Virus record (IMG/VR): IMGVR_UViG_3300015262_000014
Location: 1-52,465 of that record
Reading direction: 5' to 3' (one strand)
Length of the DNA stretch: 52,465 nucleotides
From: a virus
Part shown: positions 1 through 52,319 of the stretch, piece by piece
Layout of the letters: each line of letters opens with the position of its first letter
How positions within the stretch are numbered: position 1 is the stretch's first letter
Made by a program: the position numbers and the translations under genes
The notes under the pieces: model-generated
What the model saw: only the letters and a program-made list of their open reading frames with translations
Databases searched by the model: none
Told to the model about the DNA's origin: nothing

Positions 1-288
1 GAGCTGAAATCCTACGGCAGCCGCCCGGTGACGTCGCTGCTCAGCAACCTTAAGCCCGACGTCGAAGACATCGTCTTCGTAACCCCGAGAATTCCTGAAA
101 GCGACACCTACGCCCATCGTTTGATTGACCGCATTATCAATAAATACGGCAAGTGGTCGGGCACCCAACTGTCCAACCTCTCCCACGAGGAAGGTACCGC
201 CTGGGCACTCAGGGGCGCGGATGGTTCCGCCATTGACTGGAAGGAAATGGCGCAGCTCATTCACCCAAAGAGCCGCAACCGTGAATGA
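1..288 (+). CDS. Panacea (DUF4065/SocA-like) domain protein, C-terminal part
   Basis: The open frame runs in from the left edge, so the 5' end is missing and only the last ~95 residues are seen. The stretch KYGKWSGTQLSNLSHEEGTAW is the typical C-terminal signature of the Panacea domain (formerly DUF4065, SocA/GepA family), in which a 'leucine-serine...H-E-x-x-W' motif recurs. Panacea proteins often act as antitoxins or as partners of toxins and are common in mobile elements. The stop codon overlaps the start of the next gene by 8 bases, so the two are probably co-transcribed. In P. fluorescens-group genomes the region before mutS often holds phage-derived tailocin clusters, and this gene may be the end of such an element. 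That last point is inference. Confidence 0.7.
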   Translation, partial: ELKSYGSRPVTSLLSNLKPDVEDIVFVTPRIPESDTYAHRLIDRIINKYGKWSGTQLSNLSHEEGTAWALRGADGSAIDWKEMAQLIHPKSRNRE

Positions 289-652
289 GGAACTCGACAC
301 CCTGGAACTGACCCTGCCCCCCGCATCAGGGCCCGACCAGGACTCCCAACCCGGAGGCGAGCAGGCAGTAGGCGCTGACGACGAAAGAAACCAAAACCTG
401 AAAGATCAGAAGGCTGAACGGCTGCTGCGCAAGAAATATGCGGGGCGTGCTTTCTGGTTTGCTGCGTGCGGCGTGATCTTTTGGGCGGTGTTACTTGTGT
501 GGAATGGTTGGTCAACGTACTACTCCGGCAAAGCCCCCTTTTCCGATAACGTGTTGATTGCTATCACTACCGCAACCTCAATCAATTTGTTTGCCGCTTT
601 TCTCGGCGTTATCCGAGGCTTGTTCCCCGCCAGTGGCCGCAGGGCAAAATAA
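281..652 (+). CDS. small two-helix membrane protein partnered with the Panacea gene
   Basis: The GTG at 281 overlaps the end of the Panacea gene and is the start that keeps a compact two-gene unit, giving 123 residues. The first ~50 residues are acidic and Pro/Gly-rich and are followed by a basic stretch (residues ~50-58, AERLLRKKYAGR). Two hydrophobic segments follow (about residues 62-80, FWFAACGVIFWAVLLVW, and 93-112, NVLIAITTATSINLFAAFLG). The tail is short and basic. No enzyme motif is visible. The gene order (Panacea protein then membrane protein) suggests a toxin-antitoxin-like or exclusion pair, but nothing in the sequence proves it. Confidence 0.6.
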   Translation: MNEELDTLELTLPPASGPDQDSQPGGEQAVGADDERNQNLKDQKAERLLRKKYAGRAFWFAACGVIFWAVLLVWNGWSTYYSGKAPFSDNVLIAITTATSINLFAAFLGVIRGLFPASGRRAK

Positions 653-821: not shown

Positions 822-902
822 ATGAGTAAAACCACTTCAGACCTGTCCTCCCACACCCCCATGATGCAGCAGTATGAGCCGGAGGTGGTCGCGCGCCTTT
901 AA
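822..902 (+). pseudogene. mutS: orphan 5' end of mutS fused to prophage sequence
   Basis: The ATG at 822 begins [18 protein letters not shown], the normal Pseudomonas MutS N-terminus. After residue 18 the frame leaves the 24-bp attachment core and continues into prophage DNA as EPEVVARL, then stops, giving 26 codons in all. The remainder of mutS lies 48.9 kb away at the right end of the prophage. This stub is the host half of the split gene. Precise excision would rejoin it and give a MutS of about 863 residues. Confidence 0.9.
851..874. repeat. attL core, 24-bp direct repeat within mutS codons
   Basis: The core contains cacccccatgatgcagcagt and is identical at 49757-49780. It codes for HTPMMQQY in the mutS frame. 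Identity ends sharply to the right (t versus c). To the left the copies stay similar but with three synonymous changes in four codons. Confidence 0.92.
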
Positions 903-1186
903 TTACGTGGACTCCAGCAATTCGCTGTCTAAAACTCTACTTTGATTTAGCTGCGGTTAAGGTCAATGAATGCGCGTTAGCTTGAGGTAGTTCTAGACAG
1001 CAAAATCATCCAGATGCTGGACGCTCCCAGACGCCTTCTAAGCTGATCGATTGCGCTACATTCCGGTTACCCTGGCCAGCCGCGCTATCCGGTCATCGTT
1101 TTTACAAGGAAAAGAAGGGCTGAATGTTGAAACGGTAATGGCACATCGATATAGTCTGCCACCAAAAAAAATTCAGGGATGTGCGA
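875..1186. other. gene-free left prophage arm
   Basis: About 310 bases lie between the attachment core and the first cargo gene with no supported gene. The stretch holds the integrase arm-type heptamers listed separately, the presumed promoter of the STAS/HATPase gene, and an AGGGA ribosome binding site at 1175-1179. Confidence 0.5.
924..1001. repeat. integrase arm-type sites, left arm (inverted pair)
   Basis: gctgtcta at 924-931 and tagacagc at 994-1001 form a perfect 8-bp inverted pair. The same heptamer TAGACAG occurs twice more beside the right core (49692-49698 and 49714-49720). Four copies flanking the two cores, at 37-120 bases distance, fit the arm-binding sites of a tyrosine integrase. 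Their role is inferred from position and repetition only. Confidence 0.55.
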
Positions 1187-2170
1187 GTGCGGGTTCAGGA
1201 CGGAATTTACACGGAAAGCAACGTCATTCATTTTCCACCGTCACTGAGTGAATCGGAGCCGGGCGCGCTCTTTGAGTTTTGCGAAGCAATTCTGGCAAGT
1301 GAAGGCGTAGTAGTTCTCGACGCAAGCGCCTTTCAATTTATTGATCCCCTGGGGCTCGCAACCCTCAAATCGTCACTAGAGCGCGCGTCAATTGCCAGGC
1401 TCCATATCAGGTGGATGAGCAAAGGTCTCATTAACTACCTAGCCAGAATGGAGTTTTTCGACGGCATGATCGTCGATGGCATGGACATAGAGAAAGAACG
1501 GAATCTACTGGGTGAGCCTGACCGCTGCGTTGAACTTGTAAAGGTTGTGGACGGTCAATCGGAAGAGGTTGCTTCAAGACTTGCGCTAGCTACGGTCGGC
1601 TGGGCTCAAGGTCGTGAGCAGGAGGAACTAGACTCCTACAGGCGCCCCATTGAGTATGCCTTGAAGGAATTGCTGGGGAATGCCCTTTCCCATGCAAAGA
1701 GGGAAGGTAACTTTGGTGCGTCAGTTTGGGTCGCCTGCCAGCACTTCCGTAGTAACGGGGACGTCCGGCTTGCGATAGTTGACAACGGATGTGGTTTTCT
1801 GGCTACGCTATGGCGTCATGATCAGCTCAAAGAGCGTACAGACGTCGAAGCCATCAGAGCTGCCTTAATCGCTCGTGTGAGCTGCAATCGTGGCCCTTAC
1901 GTAGGCTATGAGACCGATAGCCAGAATCAAGGTGTAGGTTTGACCACAACCGCTAAAATCGCTGATGCCGCTGATGGCTTTCTTGTTGTAGCGAGTGGTG
2001 AGGCCTGCCTGAACACCAGAACTGATATGTCGACGTCGCTTGTCAAAGCGCCGTGGAAAGGTGTTGCGATATCATTTCACTGCAACCGCGACAAATTGCC
2101 GCAGATCAGCATTCCTGCGCTGCTCCCAGCCGTAGAGGGCGCAGTTGACGACGACATCAGTTTCATTTGA
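1187..2170 (+). CDS. STAS domain - GHKL ATPase (HATPase_c) fusion protein
   Basis: The protein has 327 residues. The GTG at 1187 was chosen because AGGGA at 1175-1179 is 7 bases upstream; a GTG at 1181 would be too close. Residues ~25-95 look like a STAS fold (VVVLDASAFQFIDPLGLATL). The second half is a GHKL ATPase: N-box ELLGNALSHA with Asn165, G1 box VDNGCGF (Asp199) and G2 box NQGVGL (Gly249, Gly251). There is no phosphoacceptor-histidine domain and no membrane segment, so it resembles an anti-sigma kinase or MutL/Hsp90-like ATPase more than a sensor kinase. The next gene is a DUF4325 STAS-like protein on the same strand. The pair recalls SpoIIAB/SpoIIAA partner switching. Function is unknown; a prophage signalling or defence role is inference. 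Confidence 0.75.
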   Translation: MRVQDGIYTESNVIHFPPSLSESEPGALFEFCEAILASEGVVVLDASAFQFIDPLGLATLKSSLERASIARLHIRWMSKGLINYLARMEFFDGMIVDGMDIEKERNLLGEPDRCVELVKVVDGQSEEVASRLALATVGWAQGREQEELDSYRRPIEYALKELLGNALSHAKREGNFGASVWVACQHFRSNGDVRLAIVDNGCGFLATLWRHDQLKERTDVEAIRAALIARVSCNRGPYVGYETDSQNQGVGLTTTAKIADAADGFLVVASGEACLNTRTDMSTSLVKAPWKGVAISFHCNRDKLPQISIPALLPAVEGAVDDDISFI

Positions 2171-2183
2171 CTAGCTTCAAGAT

Positions 2184-2211
2184 TTGCTTACTAGTGGTAC
2201 CTAGCTAAACT
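2184..2211 (+). promoter_or_regulatory. possible promoter before the DUF4325 gene
   Basis: ttgctt (2184-2189) and taaact (2206-2211) are separated by 16 bases. The match to sigma-70 consensus is moderate, and the site lies in the 97-base gap between the ATPase and STAS-like genes. It may allow separate expression of the small gene. Confidence 0.3.
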
Positions 2212-2267
2212 TTTTACCCATGCGTACGATAAACATTGTCTACGCGTACATTGCCGAGGGAAGCGCC

Positions 2268-2582
2268 ATGCAAACTCAAATCAACCTTGCTGCGGGGTCA
2301 GAGACCATTCGCACGCTTGGTATGAGGGCATCTGCCACGCCGTATCGAAAGGAAATCGAACGCTGCTTGGACACCGGCTATAGCGTCGCCATAGATTTTT
2401 CCGGTAAGGATGCCACTCAATCATTTGTCGACGAACTAATCGGCGGATTGATTCTGAAGCGAGGCAGAACTGTTCTGTCCAGCCTATCTTTTCAAAACTG
2501 TCCTGACGACGTGAAGTCGATCATTAAGTTCGTCGTTAATGATAGAGCACATCAATTGAAGACTGAGCAGGCAGTAGCCTAA
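2268..2582 (+). CDS. STAS-like domain protein (DUF4325)
   Basis: The ATG at 2268 is preceded by GAGGGAAG with good spacing and gives 104 residues. An earlier in-frame ATG at 2220 lacks such a site. The pattern 'YRKEIERCLDTGYSVAIDFSG' followed by 'DATQSFVDELIGGLI' is the hallmark of DUF4325: a beta strand ending in hydrophobic-D-F, then a loop with S-F-x-D-E. These proteins have a STAS-like fold and usually sit beside an ATPase. Here the partner is the STAS/HATPase gene just upstream. A terminator follows 20 bases after the stop, closing a two-gene unit. Confidence 0.75.
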   Translation: MQTQINLAAGSETIRTLGMRASATPYRKEIERCLDTGYSVAIDFSGKDATQSFVDELIGGLILKRGRTVLSSLSFQNCPDDVKSIIKFVVNDRAHQLKTEQAVA

Positions 2583-2601
2583 TCTATCGGATATGGAAAA
2601 A

Positions 2602-2625
2602 GCCTCGCATTGCGGGGCTTTTTTT
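2602..2625 (+). terminator. rho-independent terminator of the STAS/HATPase unit
   Basis: gcctcgc (2602-2608) pairs with gcggggc (2612-2618, one G-U) around a 3-base loop, followed by seven T. It also separates this unit from the convergent methylase gene. Confidence 0.8.
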
Positions 2626-2652: not shown

Positions 2653-3420
2653 TCACCAGTTCAAAATCACCAGCTCGCCTTTTTTTTCGGCTACCCCCTT
2701 TCGCGGATTGGCCGTGCTGTAACGAATATCCATCGCCTCCATGCGAAACCCCTCAAACACCCGCCGGATCTCGGGATGATCGTTGATGCTTACCATCACC
2801 TTGCCATCGCAGGCTCGCATGAACTCAGCCATTCGCTCGTACTGGTCAAAGCCGAACTCGGTGCCGTAGCCCTCGGTTTTCCAGTAGGGTGGGTCCATAT
2901 AGTGGAAGGTGTGGGGCCGATCGTACTTTTCGGCGCACTTCAACCACGGCAGGTTCTCCACGTAGGTTCCCGATAGCCTCTGCCAGGCCAGCGATAGGTT
3001 TTCCTCAATCCGCAGCAGGTTGATTGCCCGGCCGGTAGTGGCGGTTCCGAATGTCTGTCCCGTGGCCTTTGCACCGAACGCGTGGTGTTGGAGGTAGAAA
3101 AACCTGGCCGCCTTCTGTATATCCGTCAGCGTCTCAGGGGACGTCATCTTTTGCCATTCGAAGATCTGCCTGGAGCTGAGCGCCCATTTGAACTGGCGCA
3201 CGAATTCCTCCAGGTGGTGCTGGACGACGCGGTACAGGTTCACCAGGTCGCCGTTGAGATCGTTAAGCACCTCGACCTTGGAGGGCTGCTCGCGCTTGAA
3301 GTACAGCGCTGCGCCGCCGGCGAACACCTCAACGTAGCATTCGTGGTCCGGAAATAGCGCCAGCAGACGTTTCGAAAGACGGCGCTTGCCGCCCATCCAT
3401 GGAACGATTGGGTTTGTCAT
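2653..3420 (-). CDS. DNA adenine methyltransferase (D12/Dam class)
   Basis: The protein has 255 residues from the ATG at 3420, which has AAGGA upstream. Motif I is PWMGGKRRL near the N-terminus (the F/W-x-G-x-K signature of Dam-class N6-adenine methylases), followed by 'EVFAGGAALYF' and 'LNDLNGDLVNLYRV'. The catalytic motif IV DPPY is at residues 176-179. Length and motif order fit phage Dam enzymes that act without a restriction partner. The likely role is protection of phage DNA or altered methyl-directed signalling. No endonuclease gene is adjacent. The gene lies downstream of umuC on the same strand (36-base gap), so it may share the SOS-controlled transcript. A fragment of a second, related gene lies at 7475-7597. 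Confidence 0.9.
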   Translation of the reverse strand: MTNPIVPWMGGKRRLSKRLLALFPDHECYVEVFAGGAALYFKREQPSKVEVLNDLNGDLVNLYRVVQHHLEEFVRQFKWALSSRQIFEWQKMTSPETLTDIQKAARFFYLQHHAFGAKATGQTFGTATTGRAINLLRIEENLSLAWQRLSGTYVENLPWLKCAEKYDRPHTFHYMDPPYWKTEGYGTEFGFDQYERMAEFMRACDGKVMVSINDHPEIRRVFEGFRMEAMDIRYSTANPRKGVAEKKGELVILNW

Positions 3421-3455
3421 TAGCAGTCCTTTGCAATGGGTTGAGGTGGTGGTGC

Positions 3456-4733
3456 CTATTTGCAGCTGATCGTCCAAAGCTGATCAAGCCGCGTTGTATA
3501 GCTCTGGCTCATCATCTCGCGGCGCATGCCCCAGTCCGGGTTCGACGGAACACTGGCGGCGCGAAGCGTGCCGCGCCCCCAGCGCTCGTTGATCTGGTCC
3601 AGAACCGTCATCACTCGGGTTGCCTCGGCCGGCTGCGAAATTGCGAAGAGATCGTCGGTGTATTCGCCTTGTTGGCACAGGTTGAGCAGCATCACTTCGG
3701 CTTTGCTGTATTTGAAACCTGGGCGGAAGATCCTGTCGAGCGCATCGACAGCGGCTTTCGTGAGCAGGCGAACATCATCGGTGGGGTACGGCATATCGAC
3801 CACCACGCCGTTGGCATACTTCGCCTCCTCCGGATTGAACATTCCAGTGCGGATGCAGACGCGGACCTTTTTGCAGAGCGAGTTTTGAGCACGGAGCTTT
3901 TCGGATGCCCTCATCATGTAGGTGGCCACCGCCTCCTTGATCGGCGCCAGTTCAGTCAGGCGCTTGCCGAACATGCGACTACAGCAGATCTCTTGCTTCG
4001 GTGGGTCGGGCTCGTCCAGCTCGAGGCATGATGTGCCGGCCAGTTCCCGCGCTGTCTTCTCGATCACCACGCTGAATTTCTTGCGTAGCGTCCAAGGATC
4101 GGCTTTGGCCAGGTCCATAGCTGACTTTATGCCCATGGCGTCGAGGTGCAGTTTCATTTTCCGGCCCACACCCCAGACTTCCGACACGTCCGTGTTGCGC
4201 AGCACCCAGTCGCGCTTGACCGAATCGGTGATGTTTACCACTCCCCCGGTCTGCGCCTGCAGTCGCTTTGCCGTGTGGTTGGCCAACTTGGCCAGGGTCT
4301 TGGTGTTCGCGATGCCGACCCCGACAGGAATGCTGGTGCCGCGCAGCACCTGTGCCCGGATCTGGCGCCCTAGGGCATCCAGCCCCGATATACCCGTGAG
4401 ATCGGCGAATGCCTCATCAATGCTGTAAATCTCAACGGCGGGAACCAGAGTCTCGATCAGCGTCATCACGCGCTCGCTCATATCGCCATAAAGCGCGTAG
4501 TTTGATGAGAAGGGCACGATGCCGTGCTGCTTGAGCTTGTGCTTGATTTGGAAGTACGGCTCGCCCATCTTGATGAAAGGCTTTGCGTCGTAGCTTCGGG
4601 CGATGACACAGCCGTCGTTGTTGCTGAGCACCACGATGGGCACCCTCGCCAAGTCGGGACGGAACACACGCTCGCAGCTTGCATAAAAGCTGTTGCAGTC
4701 GATCAGCGCAAAGACAGGTGCCTGGTCAGACAT
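3456..4733 (-). CDS. umuC: UmuC/RulB-type Y-family DNA polymerase
   Basis: The protein has 425 residues, the usual length. The N-terminal polymerase domain shows the metal-binding block FALIDCNSFYASCE (Asp12), 'VVLSNNDGCVIARS', and the catalytic SIDEAF motif (YSIDEAFADL). The helix-hairpin-helix region (VWGVGRKMKLHLDAMGI) and the little-finger plus C-terminal region follow. It is the error-prone subunit of a Pol V-like complex and performs translesion synthesis once paired with processed UmuD. Its start overlaps the umuD stop by 8 bases, so both are translated from one message. All key residues are present, so it looks functional. Confidence 0.95.
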   Translation of the reverse strand: MSDQAPVFALIDCNSFYASCERVFRPDLARVPIVVLSNNDGCVIARSYDAKPFIKMGEPYFQIKHKLKQHGIVPFSSNYALYGDMSERVMTLIETLVPAVEIYSIDEAFADLTGISGLDALGRQIRAQVLRGTSIPVGVGIANTKTLAKLANHTAKRLQAQTGGVVNITDSVKRDWVLRNTDVSEVWGVGRKMKLHLDAMGIKSAMDLAKADPWTLRKKFSVVIEKTARELAGTSCLELDEPDPPKQEICCSRMFGKRLTELAPIKEAVATYMMRASEKLRAQNSLCKKVRVCIRTGMFNPEEAKYANGVVVDMPYPTDDVRLLTKAAVDALDRIFRPGFKYSKAEVMLLNLCQQGEYTDDLFAISQPAEATRVMTVLDQINERWGRGTLRAASVPSNPDWGMRREMMSQSYTTRLDQLWTISCK

Positions 4734-5151
4734 GGCTGCGTACGGTGCTGGTGATCACGCCCCAGATCGACAGTTCGTCGCCCTCCAAAATGTACCGAGC
4801 TGGGTATTTCGGGTTCTCCGACAGAAGGATCACCTCTTTCCCGCGCTTACACAGGCGTTTGCAGATGGGGTCATTGTTCAGCAGCGCCACGACTACGTGC
4901 CCGTGGGCCGGCTCAATAGATCGGTCAACGACCGCTAGGTCACCCTCAAAAATACCCGCGCCCTGCATACTCTCGCCAGTAATGGCGATCAGATAGACGT
5001 GCGGAGCCCTGATATTTAAGACCTCATCCAGTGAGATGTGCTGCTCGATGTGATCGGCCGCCGGCGATGGAAAGCCTGCTGGCACCCGAAAAGAGCAAAA
5101 AGGCAGCTTCGTGCCGCCCTCGGCGATAGGACCTAAAATTGCGAAACTCAT
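4726..5151 (-). CDS. umuD: UmuD/RulA-type self-cleaving protein
   Basis: The protein has 141 residues from the ATG at 5151. It belongs to the LexA/UmuD peptidase family (S24). The cleavage site is Ala25-Gly26 within VPAGFPSPAAD, the catalytic serine is Ser61 in ITGESMQ, and the lysine is Lys98 in PICKRL. RecA-stimulated self-cleavage would give the UmuD' form that activates UmuC. The perfect LexA-type box 21 bases upstream of the start indicates SOS control. The operon continues into umuC and possibly the methylase. Confidence 0.94.
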   Translation of the reverse strand: MSFAILGPIAEGGTKLPFCSFRVPAGFPSPAADHIEQHISLDEVLNIRAPHVYLIAITGESMQGAGIFEGDLAVVDRSIEPAHGHVVVALLNNDPICKRLCKRGKEVILLSENPKYPARYILEGDELSIWGVITSTVRSHV

Positions 5152-5171
5152 GACGCAGCCTTTTACAGACA

Positions 5172-5187
5172 CTGTACGAATGTACAG
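5172..5187. promoter_or_regulatory. LexA (SOS) box of the umuDC operon
   Basis: ctgtacgaatgtacag matches CTGT-N8-ACAG exactly and is a near-perfect palindrome. It sits 21 bases upstream of the umuD start, where it would cover the promoter. Binding by host LexA would keep the operon off until DNA damage. Confidence 0.85.
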
Positions 5188-5247
5188 TTAATATCGCAGA
5201 TGGATTGCGGTCAATTTGGCGTAAGAGATATCTGACAAGCGGGCGCG

Positions 5248-5427
5248 TCAGCCCAACTCATCTGCGTACGTGGCGACGGCCTCTTCGGTCAGTTCCCGCC
5301 ACTCACCGCTGTCGATTACACCGCGCTCTTTCATGTCGTCAGCCAGCGCCAGGCGCCTCTCGTAACGCTCCTCCGGTGTTGCTGAGATGAAGTCCGGATC
5401 GTTGCGCAGGGAAAACCACGCCTCCAT
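5248..5427 (-). CDS. small charged protein of unknown function (59 aa)
   Basis: A complete short frame starts at the ATG at 5427 and reads MEAWFSLRNDPDFISATPEE, with 'ERYERRLALADDMKERGVID' and 'EWRELTEEAVATYADELG' after it. The helical, acidic composition and regular codon use look like a real phage protein. No Shine-Dalgarno sequence is obvious. It lies between the LexA box of umuDC and the SRAP gene, on the umuDC strand. Function is unknown. Confidence 0.5.
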   Translation of the reverse strand: MEAWFSLRNDPDFISATPEERYERRLALADDMKERGVIDSGEWRELTEEAVATYADELG

Positions 5428-5478
5428 TGCGTTGATCTAATCGATGTTTATTGTCATGACGAATACCCGGGGCCAGTG

Positions 5479-5491
5479 TCTACAGTGTAGA
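5479..5491. promoter_or_regulatory. possible operator before the SRAP gene
   Basis: tctacagtgtaga is a perfect 6+1+6 palindrome located 48 bases before the SRAP start. It is too short to be a canonical LexA box, so the regulator is unknown. Confidence 0.3.
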
Positions 5492-5539
5492 GATTGGCCG
5501 GGCCCCGGCTGTTCATGGGGCCGACGAGCGGAGACGACT

Positions 5540-6220
5540 ATGTGTGGAAGGATTTCCCAATACAGCGGCATTCACGACTTCGTTGCAGCGCTGAGCATGC
5601 CCAATGCTCTGGCGAATTCCGTCGGCGAATTGCCGCTCGAGCGCTACAACGTCGCCCCGACAACCCAAGTCGCCCTGCTCCACCTGCAGGGCGATCTGCT
5701 GCACGCCGACCTGGTGCGATGGGGATGGCGGTCGCACTGGGCCAAGGACCGCGCAGCGCCGATTAATGCCCGCGTCGAGAAGGTGGCCCACGGACCGTTC
5801 TTCCGCGCGATCTGGCCATACCGGGCAATCACGCCCATCGATAACTGGTTTGAGTGGGTGGACGAAGGCGGACCAAAGAAGCAGCCCTACCTGATCCGGC
5901 GGCGGGACGGCGCGCCGGTGCTGTGCGCCGCCATTGGCCAACTGCCCGACAGCGATGAAGGCCCGGGTGAACATGACGGCTTCGTAATCATCACCGCCGA
6001 CAGCGCCGGCGGCATGGTGGACATTCACGACCGGCGCCCGGTGGTGCTGACTCCGGGCCTGGGCCGGGAATGGTTGGACCCGGCCACGCCCAAGGAGCGC
6101 GCCGAACAGATGGTGCTGCACCAGGACGAGTCGGCCGATGCTTTCGAATGGTTTAAAGTCGACATGGCCGTTGGCAATTCGAAAAACAGAGGGCCGGATT
6201 TAATTCAAGCTAAGAACTAG
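5540..6220 (+). CDS. yedK: SOS response-associated peptidase (SRAP/YedK/HMCES)
   Basis: The protein has 226 residues. The ATG at 5540 is fixed by the obligatory MCGR start, because Cys2 must become the N-terminal nucleophile after methionine removal. The other active-site residues are visible: Asn76 in PINARVE, Glu105 in NWFEW and His163 in DIHDRRPV. The family crosslinks to abasic sites in single-stranded DNA and shields them from nucleases and error-prone bypass. The gene is divergent from umuDC and close to it, making a DNA-damage module in the prophage. The 3' end overlaps the convergent membrane-protein gene by 11 bases. Confidence 0.93.
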   Translation: MCGRISQYSGIHDFVAALSMPNALANSVGELPLERYNVAPTTQVALLHLQGDLLHADLVRWGWRSHWAKDRAAPINARVEKVAHGPFFRAIWPYRAITPIDNWFEWVDEGGPKKQPYLIRRRDGAPVLCAAIGQLPDSDEGPGEHDGFVIITADSAGGMVDIHDRRPVVLTPGLGREWLDPATPKERAEQMVLHQDESADAFEWFKVDMAVGNSKNRGPDLIQAKN

Positions 6221-47705: not shown

Positions 47706-48698
47706 ATGCGTCCGCGCAAAAAGGACCGGCACCTGCCGGCGTGCATGTACCAGAAGCATGGCGCTTATTACCTGGTCCGCAAGGGCAAGTGGAAGCGCCT
47801 GGGCACCGACTTCCAGGCATCCCTGGCCGAGTACGCCAAGCTGCTGGATAAAGGCAGCCAGGGCGGCATGCCCAAGCTGATCGACGACGCGCTCGAGCAC
47901 ATGCGCACCAGGACGAAGCCGCCGCTGAAGCCGAACACTCTCAAGCAGTACGAGGCGGCGTGCGAGCGGCTGAAGGAAAACTTCGCCGACTTTGAGCCCC
48001 GCGAGGTACTGCAGCGGCACGTTGTCGCCCTCAAGCTGCACATGGCCGACACACCGAATATGTCGAACCGGGTGATCTCGGTGTTGCGGGCAGTATTCAC
48101 TTACGCCCTTGAGCAGCAGATAGTCGACTCAAATCCATGCATCGGCGTCCGTCGGCACGTGGAGCACAAGCGCGATAGGTATATCACTCACGGCGAATTC
48201 CAGGCCATCTGCGCCCACTCCAGCGACAACATGCGGGTTATATACGAGATGTGCTATCTGACCGGCCAGCGCATTGGAGACGTCCTTGCTATCCGCCTGG
48301 TGGATATTAGCGCCGAAGGAATCGCCTTCAAGCAGGAGAAGACGAATGCCAGGTTGCTGGTGCAGATGACTCCTGACCTGGAGGATCTGATCTCCAGGAT
48401 CAAGGCGCTGCCGAGAAAGATTCGGGGGCTCACCCTATTCTGCTCCCCTCGCGGCGGGAAGCCGGTGCACTACAGCTCGGTCAAGGACGCCTTCGCCATC
48501 AGTTGCAGAAAAGCCGGCGTCGAGGATGCGAGCCTTCATGACCTTCGAGCAAAGTCCCTTTCGGATACCGACGACCAAGGCAACGATGCTCAAAAGTTGG
48601 GGGGGCACACAGACGCCAAGATGACGCAGCGTTATCTGCGCTTGCGCAAAATCAACGTAGGTCTTCCACCAACAATGCCAAAAGATGTAAAACTTTAA
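47706..48698 (+). CDS. int: tyrosine recombinase (phage integrase)
   Basis: The protein has 330 residues from the ATG at 47706 (GAGGTGAAG upstream); an upstream ATG at 47601 lies in the excisionase gene. An N-terminal arm-binding part and core-binding part are followed by the catalytic domain with Arg189 (GQRIGD), Lys212, His278-x-x-Arg281 (LHDLRAK), His301 (LGGHTD) and the nucleophile Tyr310 (QRYLR). It directs recombination at the 24-bp mutS core, probably with the TAGACAG arm sites. Confidence 0.93.
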   Translation: MRPRKKDRHLPACMYQKHGAYYLVRKGKWKRLGTDFQASLAEYAKLLDKGSQGGMPKLIDDALEHMRTRTKPPLKPNTLKQYEAACERLKENFADFEPREVLQRHVVALKLHMADTPNMSNRVISVLRAVFTYALEQQIVDSNPCIGVRRHVEHKRDRYITHGEFQAICAHSSDNMRVIYEMCYLTGQRIGDVLAIRLVDISAEGIAFKQEKTNARLLVQMTPDLEDLISRIKALPRKIRGLTLFCSPRGGKPVHYSSVKDAFAISCRKAGVEDASLHDLRAKSLSDTDDQGNDAQKLGGHTDAKMTQRYLRLRKINVGLPPTMPKDVKL

Positions 48699-49739: not shown

Positions 49740-52319
49740 ATGACAGACCTCTCCAGCCACACCCCCATGATGCAGCAGTACTGGCGCCTCAAGAACCAGC
49801 ACCCTGATCAGCTGATGTTCTACCGCATGGGCGACTTCTACGAGATCTTCTACGAAGACGCGAAGAAGGCCGCCAAGTTGCTGGATATCACCCTGACAGC
49901 GCGCGGGCAGTCGGCAGGGCAGTCGATCCCGATGTGTGGGATTCCCTACCATTCGTTGGAAGGCTATCTGGTCAAACTGGTGAAATTGGGCGAGTCAGTG
50001 GTGATCTGTGAGCAGATCGGCGATCCGGCCACCAGCAAGGGGCCGGTGGAACGTCAGGTGGTGCGCATTATTACGCCGGGGACGGTGAGTGATGAGGCGC
50101 TGCTGGATGAGCGCCGCGACAACCTGATTGCAGCGGTGTTGGGCGACGAGCGCCTGTTCGGCCTGTCGGTGCTGGACATCACCAGTGGCAACTTCAGCGT
50201 GCTGGAGATCAAAGGCTGGGAGAACCTGCTGGCGGAGCTGGAGCGTATCAACCCCGTGGAGTTATTGATCCCGGATGATTGGCCGAAGGATCTGCCGGCG
50301 GAAAAACGCCGTGGGGCCAAGCGCCGTGCGCCGTGGGACTTCGAACGCGATTCGGCGCTGAAAAGCCTGTGCCAGCAGTTCTCGGTGCAGGACCTTAAAG
50401 GCTTCGGTTGTGAAACCTTAACCCTGGCCATCGGTGCAGCAGGTTGCTTGCTGGGCTATGCCAAGGAAACCCAGCGCACGGCCCTGCCGCATTTGCGCAG
50501 CCTGCGTCATGAGCGTCTGGACGATACCGTGGTGCTCGATGGCGCAAGCCGTCGCAACCTGGAGCTGGACACCAACCTGGCCGGCGGGCGTGACAACACC
50601 CTGCAATCGGTGGTCGACCGTTGCCAGACGGCCATGGGTAGCCGCTTGCTGACCCGCTGGCTGAACCGTCCGCTGCGCGACTTGAGCGTGCTGCAGGCGC
50701 GTCAGACGTCTATTACTTGCCTGCTGGACGGCTATCGCTTTGAAAAGCTGCAGCCACAGCTGAAGGAAATCGGCGATATCGAGCGCATCCTGGCGCGTAT
50801 CGGTCTGCGTAATGCGCGCCCGCGCGACTTGGCGCGCCTGCGTGATGCCCTCGCAGCCTTGCCACAGTTGCAAGCGGCGATGACCGAACTGGATACGCCG
50901 CACCTGCAACAGCTCGCGGTCACGGCCGGTACTTACCCGGAACTGGCGGCGTTGCTGGGAAAAGCCATCATCGACAACCCGCCGGCAATCATCCGCGACG
51001 GCGGCGTATTGAAGACCGGTTACGACAGCGAGCTGGACGAACTCCAAGCCCTGAGCGAGAACGCCGGGCAATTCCTGATTGACCTGGAAGCCCGCGAGAA
51101 AGCCCGTACCGGCCTGGCCAACTTGAAAGTCGGCTACAACCGCGTGCACGGTTATTTCATCGAATTACCGAGCAAGCAGGCCGAGTCGGCGCCGATCGAC
51201 TATCAACGTCGCCAGACACTGAAAGGTGCCGAACGGTTTATCACTCCCGAACTGAAAGAATTCGAAGACAAGGCGCTGTCGGCGAAGAGCCGCGCCCTGG
51301 CTCGGGAGAAGATGCTCTATGAAAACCTGCTTGAAGACCTGATCAGCCAGTTGGCGCCGCTGCAGGACACCGCCAGCGCCCTGGCCGAACTGGATGTACT
51401 GAGCAACTTGGCCGAACGTGCATTGAACCTTGACCTGAACTGCCCGCGTTTTGTCAGCGAGCCGTGCATGCGCATCGTGCAAGGTCGCCACCCGGTCGTA
51501 GAGCAGGTGCTGACCACGCCGTTCGTCGCCAACGATCTGTCGCTGGACGACGATACCCGCATGCTGGTGATCACCGGTCCGAACATGGGCGGTAAATCCA
51601 CCTACATGCGCCAGACCGCTTTGATCGTGCTCCTGGCGCATATCGGCAGCTTTGTGCCGGCGGCCAGTTGCGAGCTGTCCCTGGTGGATCGCATTTTCAC
51701 CCGGATCGGTTCCAGCGACGACCTGGCCGGTGGCCGTTCGACGTTTATGGTGGAAATGAGCGAGACCGCCAACATCTTGCACAACGCCACCGAACGCAGC
51801 CTGGTGTTGATGGACGAAGTGGGCCGCGGCACCAGCACCTTCGACGGCCTGTCCCTGGCCTGGGCGGCGGCCGAGCGCCTGGCGCACTTGCGTGCCTACA
51901 CCCTGTTTGCCACCCACTACTTCGAGCTGACTGTTTTGCCGGAGAGCGAACCGTTGGTGGCCAACGTGCATCTGAACGCCACCGAGCACAACGAGCGTAT
52001 CGTGTTCCTGCACCACGTACTGCCGGGCCCGGCCAGCCAGAGTTACGGCCTGGCCGTGGCCCAACTGGCGGGTGTGCCGAATGACGTGATCACCCGCGCC
52101 CGCGAACACCTCAGCCGCCTGGAAACCACGGCCCTGCCCCATGAAACGGCGGTAGCCAGCCCCGCCAAAGCCTCCAGCAAACCGGCCGCACCGCATCAAA
52201 GCGACATGTTCGCCAGCCTGCCCCATCCGGTGCTGGATGAGCTGGCAAAGCTTGACCTGGATGACTTGACGCCGCGGAAAGCGCTCGAAATGTTATATGC
52301 ACTGAAGACTCGGATATAA
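49740..52319 (+). CDS. mutS: DNA mismatch repair protein MutS with prophage-supplied N-terminus
   Basis: The protein has 859 residues. The first residues [16 protein letters not shown] come from the prophage arm and core. Domain I carries the mismatch-wedging motif [10 protein letters not shown]. Walker A is [15 protein letters not shown], followed by '[20 protein letters not shown]', Walker B '[16 protein letters not shown]' and 'FATHYFELT'. The protein ends normally at a Pseudomonas-type C-terminus. The sequence differs from the displaced native start (MSKTTSDLSS...) only before the core. MutS should be active if expressed, but its promoter and leader are now phage-borne. Confidence 0.97.
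49757..49780. repeat. attR core, 24-bp direct repeat within mutS
   Basis: It is identical to 851-874 and codes for the same HTPMMQQY in the active gene. The upstream flank is prophage DNA that encodes MTDLSS. Confidence 0.92.

What the first reader, a model, noticed from the sequence alone, without database searches (positions are those of the whole stretch)
1187..2582. STAS-HATPase protein paired with a DUF4325 STAS-like protein: candidate new signalling or defence module
The first protein fuses a STAS fold to a complete GHKL ATPase core, with no histidine-kinase dimerisation domain. The second is a minimal STAS-like protein. Two genes, one terminator, at the prophage edge: the architecture mimics partner-switching (SpoIIAA/SpoIIAB) but with no sigma factor nearby. 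Such pairs recur near mobile elements, and I know of no described function.
Basis: partly seen in the sequence, partly recalled or inferred. Interest (0 to 1): 0.72.

Follow-up and report, generated by a model that had tools for sequence, protein, structure and literature searches.

The report
Prophage kinase–STAS switch without output gene
Two adjacent prophage genes look like a serine kinase and the small protein it phosphorylates, resembling a recently described DNA-damage switch that controls bacterial immune genes or toxins, but here the gene that the switch should control is missing.

Summary
p1 (1187-2170, +) is an N-terminal STAS domain plus a complete GHKL core. They share a σ70-type promoter (1127-1155) and a strong terminator (2595-2625). 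They are the first genes inside attL of a complete ~49-kb prophage in mutS. All informative loci sampled (about 16 independent elements) keep p1-p2 in tandem.

The claim of no described function is out of date. CapK/CapS and VapK/VapS/VapC (Chambers et al., EMBO J 2026, PMC13373217) have the same kinase-substrate logic. p1 models as a SpoIIAB-like serine kinase and aligns with a VapK over its length. p2 has an invariant serine at the CapS phospho-acceptor position (18/18). The common single-chain HTH-GHKL-DUF4325 proteins have Ala or Gly there (18/18).

It is neither CapKS nor VapKSC as defined: p1 has no HTH, p2 has no DNA-binding wing, and no PIN toxin or other conserved third gene follows. 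Best reading: a mobile phospho-switch whose target is encoded elsewhere. The trigger (ssDNA?) and output are undetermined. New variant of a known kind.

The parts
851..874 (.). attL core (24-bp direct repeat with attR) in the 5' end of mutS
   Evidence: Exact repeat with 49757-49780; intact mutS starts at 49740 on the right
1127..1155 (+). sigma70-type promoter TTGAAA-17-TATAGT of the pair
   Evidence: 10/12 consensus; hexamers and 17-nt spacing shared by L003, L004, L006, L007, L014 and, with a weaker -35, L016; the conserved DNA block with L004 begins exactly at 1127. Such sites are expected by chance in this region, so the evidence is the conservation
1175..1179 (+). Shine-Dalgarno AGGGA of p1
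   Evidence: Conserved AGGGA/AAGGA about 7-9 nt before GTG in relatives
1187..2170 (+). p1: STAS-GHKL protein, 327 aa, predicted serine kinase (VapK/CapK-like)
   Evidence: Pfam HATPase_c; model pLDDT 82, best PDB matches SpoIIAB and RsbW-type anti-sigma kinases; VapK profile match over 264 columns; catalytic motifs invariant
2268..2582 (+). p2: DUF4325 STAS-like protein, 104 aa, predicted phospho-acceptor Ser52 in ATQSFVDEL
   Evidence: PF14213 1.4e-10; Ser52 invariant 18/18; model pLDDT 89, Ser52 at the N-terminus of helix 51-65
2595..2625 (+). rho-independent terminator
   Evidence: Hairpin -18.5 kcal/mol, z -4.69, ending in T7
47706..48698 (+). tyrosine integrase of the prophage; lies near the pair across attP in the circular phage
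   Evidence: 70% identical to the L014 integrase, which is Pfam Phage_integrase 3.2e-19
49757..49780 (.). attR core
   Evidence: 24-bp repeat

Best explanation
A phage-carried kinase-substrate switch of the CapK/VapK kind. p1 is a serine kinase whose N-terminal STAS domain probably senses a signal, by analogy ssDNA or another product of DNA damage or infection. p2 is its substrate: unphosphorylated p2 binds a partner protein, and phosphorylation at Ser52 releases that partner. Because p2 has no DNA-binding domain and no toxin is co-encoded, the partner is most likely a host or phage protein made elsewhere. The pair is transcribed from its own promoter in the lysogen, as autonomous integrase-linked cargo, and most likely serves stress- or infection-responsive protection or control of the lysogen. 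Shown here: genes, promoter-like site, terminator, conservation, fold, catalytic and acceptor residues. Inferred: expression in the lysogen, phosphorylation, the trigger, the partner and the benefit.
For: Every informative locus keeps p1 followed by p2. p1 and p2 distance matrices correlate (r 0.86, permutation p 0.0005, 18 loci). The p1 model best matches SpoIIAB 1l0o, 1tid, 1til and then mycobacterial anti-sigmaF kinases. Catalytic Glu161/Asn165 and G1/G2 motifs are invariant. Profile match to the VapK of an intact VapKSC-type operon (L069): hhalign probability 95.7, E 9e-9, 264 columns over STAS and GHKL. VapS of that operon is itself DUF4325 (1.5e-14). Acceptor Ser 18/18 in the two-gene form versus Ala/Gly 18/18 in single-chain GHKL-DUF4325 proteins. 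Published biochemistry of CapK/CapS and VapK/VapS (PMC13373217).
Against: No direct evidence of phosphorylation, ssDNA binding or a target. p2 versus VapS by sequence alone is weak (hhalign E 0.0016-0.0025, probability 12-16), and the p2 fold search gave no significant match. The Trp that stacks on ssDNA in CapK has no clear equivalent in p1. No immune gene follows the pair. The mirror correlation is partly shared ancestry.
Confidence: 0.58

Rival explanations
1. Lysogeny control: p2 holds a phage protein (repressor, antirepressor or integrase/excisionase) and p1, activated by DNA damage, releases it, so the pair tunes prophage induction rather than defending the host.
For: The pair lies next to the integrase in L007, L014, L022 and L023 and near it in the window's circular form; UmuDC, SRAP and Dam cargo beside it in several elements suggests DNA-damage linkage.
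Against: The pair occurs in elements with different integrases and on conjugative plasmids, and a distant relative lies beside ileS (L106), where no phage repressor is at hand.
Confidence: 0.18
2. Counter-defence decoy: p2 mimics VapS/CapS, or p1 mis-phosphorylates them, disarming host VapKSC or CapKS-controlled immunity.
For: Shares the DUF4325 family with VapS and lies on phages.
Against: Sequence similarity to VapS is low and p2 has lineage-specific conserved surfaces (ATQSFVDEL, C-terminal xxERAIA); an active kinase would not be needed for a decoy.
Confidence: 0.08
3. Classical partner switch acting on a host sigma factor (anti-sigma p1, anti-anti-sigma p2).
For: p1 fold is SpoIIAB/RsbW-like.
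Against: No sigma factor or PP2C-type phosphatase was recognised beside the pair in the neighbourhoods read; p1 has an extra STAS domain absent from SpoIIAB/RsbW; it recurs mainly on mobile elements.
Confidence: 0.1
4. Decayed remnant of a VapKSC or CapKS system that lost its output gene and has no function.
For: No third gene.
Against: p2 dN/dS about 0.06-0.07, invariant catalytic and acceptor residues, retained promoter, and the same two-gene form in all sampled elements.
Confidence: 0.04

Closest known systems
VapK-VapS-VapC (Chambers et al. 2026, PMC13373217)
   Same: STAS-GHKL kinase without HTH followed by a short DUF4325 STAS protein; serine just before the conserved Phe; p1 aligns with VapK over 264 columns
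   Different: No PIN toxin gene; p2 ends near where the VapS inhibitory tail would extend; low p2-VapS sequence similarity
CapK-CapS (same paper; homologues at L097 and L101 here)
   Same: Kinase then STAS substrate in tandem; acceptor Ser directly before Phe as in CapS homologues
   Different: p1 lacks the N-terminal HTH, p2 lacks the winged HTH, no immune operon downstream
SpoIIAB/SpoIIAA and RsbW/RsbV
   Same: GHKL serine kinase fold, top structural match; STAS substrate with serine at a helix start
   Different: No sigma factor, no phosphatase, extra N-terminal STAS in the kinase
Single-chain HTH-GHKL-DUF4325 proteins (~345 aa, the commonest PF14213 form among the Gammaproteobacteria sampled)
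   Same: Same two domains fused
   Different: Acceptor Ser replaced by Ala/Gly in 18/18; HTH at the N-terminus

Membership tests
PF14213 (DUF4325) | Profile score above the curated cut-off | tested here: met
   p2 41.1 bits against cut-off 23
GHKL ATPase/kinase (PF02518) | Profile score above cut-off with N, G1 and G2 boxes | tested here: met
   28.3 bits against 26.4; boxes invariant
Sensor histidine kinase | H-box dimerisation/phospho-acceptor domain | tested here: not met
   No HisKA-type hit; a STAS domain occupies the N-terminus
VapKSC | STAS-GHKL kinase without HTH, homologous to VapK | tested here: met
   hhalign probability 95.7 over 264 columns
VapKSC | DUF4325 substrate with conserved Ser/Thr | tested here: met
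   Both p2 and VapS are PF14213; Ser52 18/18; the exact register with VapS Ser48 may be off by one residue
VapKSC | VapC-like PIN toxin gene in the operon | tested here: not met
   No tblastn hit of the Deinococcus VapC in the window or 17 loci; p2 is followed by the terminator
CapK/CapS | N-terminal HTH in the kinase and C-terminal winged HTH in the substrate | tested here: not met
   p1 starts at the STAS domain; p2 is 104 aa and all STAS; contrast L097 CapS, which hits MarR-type HTH
CapK/CapS | Located upstream of an immune operon | tested here: not met
   Terminator and convergent or unrelated genes follow
CapK/VapK | Activation by ssDNA through an aromatic residue (CapK W68, VapK F54) | tested here: inconclusive
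CapK/VapK | Phosphorylation of the substrate serine | not testable with these tools
   Needs biochemistry
SpoIIAB/SpoIIAA | Linked sigma factor | tested here: not met
   None recognised in the neighbourhoods read

The most novel reading that the evidence does not exclude
A third output class of the CapK/VapK kinase switch: a mobile two-gene module in which the STAS substrate is neither a repressor nor an antitoxin for a linked toxin, but controls an unlinked host or phage protein, so that a prophage hooks a host pathway to DNA damage or infection.
Probability: 0.33. Interest if true: 0.65.

Novelty: new variant of a known kind. Interest (0 to 1): 0.46.

Why it matters
It shows the CapK/VapK phospho-switch in a stripped-down form that prophages and plasmids carry without the gene it should control, which makes 'what does the STAS protein bind?' directly testable. 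It also links the large family of uncharacterised DUF4325 proteins to a phosphorylation mechanism, and separates two-gene switches (Ser kept) from single-chain relatives (Ser lost).

Tried and rejected
A first joint alignment misplaced the kinase rows. p2 fold search: no significant match. tblastn of p1 and p2 in annotated phages: none at the limits used. The upstream ORF 1051-1251 as an N-terminal extension or frameshift of p1: rejected, it is the conserved promoter. p2 start at 2220: rejected. DISARM link through the PADLOC DrmA profile (N-terminal part matches p1 and p2): followed to genomes, where the strong DrmA matches begin at position 637 or later and the N-terminal part matches separate STAS-GHKL or DUF4325 proteins; read as a composite profile, not evidence of DISARM. 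Literature searches for DUF4325/STAS-like defence found only the 2026 paper.

Full report
What is in the sequence. The window is one virus record of 52,465 bases. It contains a complete prophage inserted in the 5' end of mutS, bounded by a 24-bp repeat at 851-874 and 49757-49780, with an intact mutS at 49740-52319, an integrase at 47706-48698 and phage genes between. The two genes of the finding are the first genes inside the left boundary. The short reading frame upstream that resembles an N-terminal extension in relatives is a conserved promoter-like site, TTGAAA-17-TATAGT, shared by L003, L004, L006, L007 and L014, and L016 with a weaker -35. One or two such matches are expected by chance in the region, so the support is its conservation. 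p2 begins at ATG 2268, where the ribosome site and start are conserved, not at 2220. A strong terminator follows at 2595-2625. DNA similarity to L004 runs from 1127 to 2640, that is from the promoter to the terminator, so the cassette is promoter-p1-p2-terminator.

What the proteins are. p1 has a GHKL ATPase match above the Pfam cut-off and a weak STAS match. Its model (pLDDT 82) matches SpoIIAB and the mycobacterial anti-sigma kinase best, and a STAS domain for the N-terminal part. The catalytic Glu161 and Asn165 and the G1/G2 glycines are invariant in 16 relatives. No histidine-kinase dimerisation domain was found. p2 is DUF4325. Its model (pLDDT 89) puts the invariant Ser52 of ATQSFVDEL at the start of a helix, the usual place of the STAS phospho-acceptor (the usual place is established knowledge of SpoIIAA-type proteins). 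The Foldseek search with p2 was not informative.

Conservation. Relatives were found in prophage contigs, Pseudomonas chromosomes and a pair of conjugative plasmids. p1 is followed by p2 in every locus where both sides are visible: L001-L011, L014, L016, L022, L023, five near-identical Pseudomonas loci L027-L031, and L083. The count of independent elements is therefore about 16, not the raw number of loci. p2 evolves under strong purifying selection (dN/dS 0.06-0.07 against L003 and L004; dS of p1 is saturated). p1 and p2 distances correlate (r 0.86), which fits co-evolution but also shared descent. The pair is next to different tyrosine integrases in L007, L014 and L022/L023.

What it works like. 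A 2026 paper (PMC13373217) describes CapK (HTH-STAS-GHKL), a kinase activated by ssDNA, which phosphorylates CapS (STAS-winged HTH) and relieves repression of immune operons, and VapK-VapS-VapC, where a HTH-less kinase and a short STAS antitoxin control a PIN toxin. I found an intact VapKSC-type operon on a Deinococcus plasmid (L069; ATP-binding protein, STAS-like protein, PIN protein). The p1 profile matches its VapK over 264 columns (probability 95.7), more strongly than a CapK homologue (72); both are comparisons with single sequences. The VapS there is DUF4325 like p2, although direct p2-VapS similarity is weak. CapS homologues at L097 and L101 carry the serine directly before the conserved Phe, as p2 does. 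In the large single-chain HTH-GHKL-DUF4325 family that serine is Ala or Gly in all 18 sequences read, against Ser in all 18 p2 proteins. This contrast is the best sequence evidence that the two-gene form is a phospho-switch; that the single-chain form is not one is an inference.

What is different. p1 lacks the CapK HTH and p2 lacks the CapS winged HTH. No PIN gene or other shared third gene follows p2: VapC gave no hit in the window or 17 loci, and neighbours differ between elements. So the pair fails a defining feature of each system and should not be filed as a member of either. The nearest statement is a third arrangement of the same kinase-substrate core. The target is then probably a protein encoded elsewhere. 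Whether the trigger is ssDNA is open: the CapK tryptophan has no counterpart in p1, while an aromatic before [IV]DP is kept in 17 of 17 and may correspond to VapK F54.

Verdict. Confidence 0.58 in the kinase-substrate switch with an unlinked target.

Noticed in passing
window 822-880 and 49740-49800: The prophage uses the 5' end of mutS as attachment site and restores mutS with its own start codon; a mutS remnant is left at attL. The same kind of remnant is seen in L001 and L003.
   Followed up: partly
window 28-652: Panacea (SocA-like) antitoxin domain followed by a small membrane-protein reading frame, a likely toxin-antitoxin pair, just outside attL.
   Followed up: no
window 2653-6217: Dam-type methylase, UmuC, UmuD and an SRAP peptidase lie beside the pair; UmuDC and Dam recur near it in L001, L002 and L003.
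   Followed up: partly
L050 369-2268; L056 385-2211: STAS-GHKL + DUF4325 + a small protein with an N-terminal membrane helix (~155-165 aa) in tandem in two other genomes: possibly a switch controlling a membrane effector instead of VapC.
   Followed up: partly
L035, L036, L037: A second, distant Pseudomonas family of GHKL + DUF4325 pairs (SISESF/YADELFG motif); in L036 and L037 directly beside what looks like a tyrosine integrase.
   Followed up: no
PADLOC model PDLC02567 (DrmA), positions 39-401: The first ~400 positions of this defence model match STAS-GHKL and DUF4325 proteins rather than DrmA helicases, so stand-alone pairs could raise false DISARM hits.
   Followed up: partly
L101 2730-5590; L097 13167-14876: CapK/CapS-like pairs in front of a CBASS-type nucleotidyltransferase (L101) and about 5 kb from a DrmA-like gene (L097).
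   Followed up: partly
L011 3250-7163: On a conjugative Pseudomonas plasmid the pair lies next to PfkB-type kinase, QueC-like, nitroreductase, 8-oxoguanine glycosylase and Dam genes.
   Followed up: no
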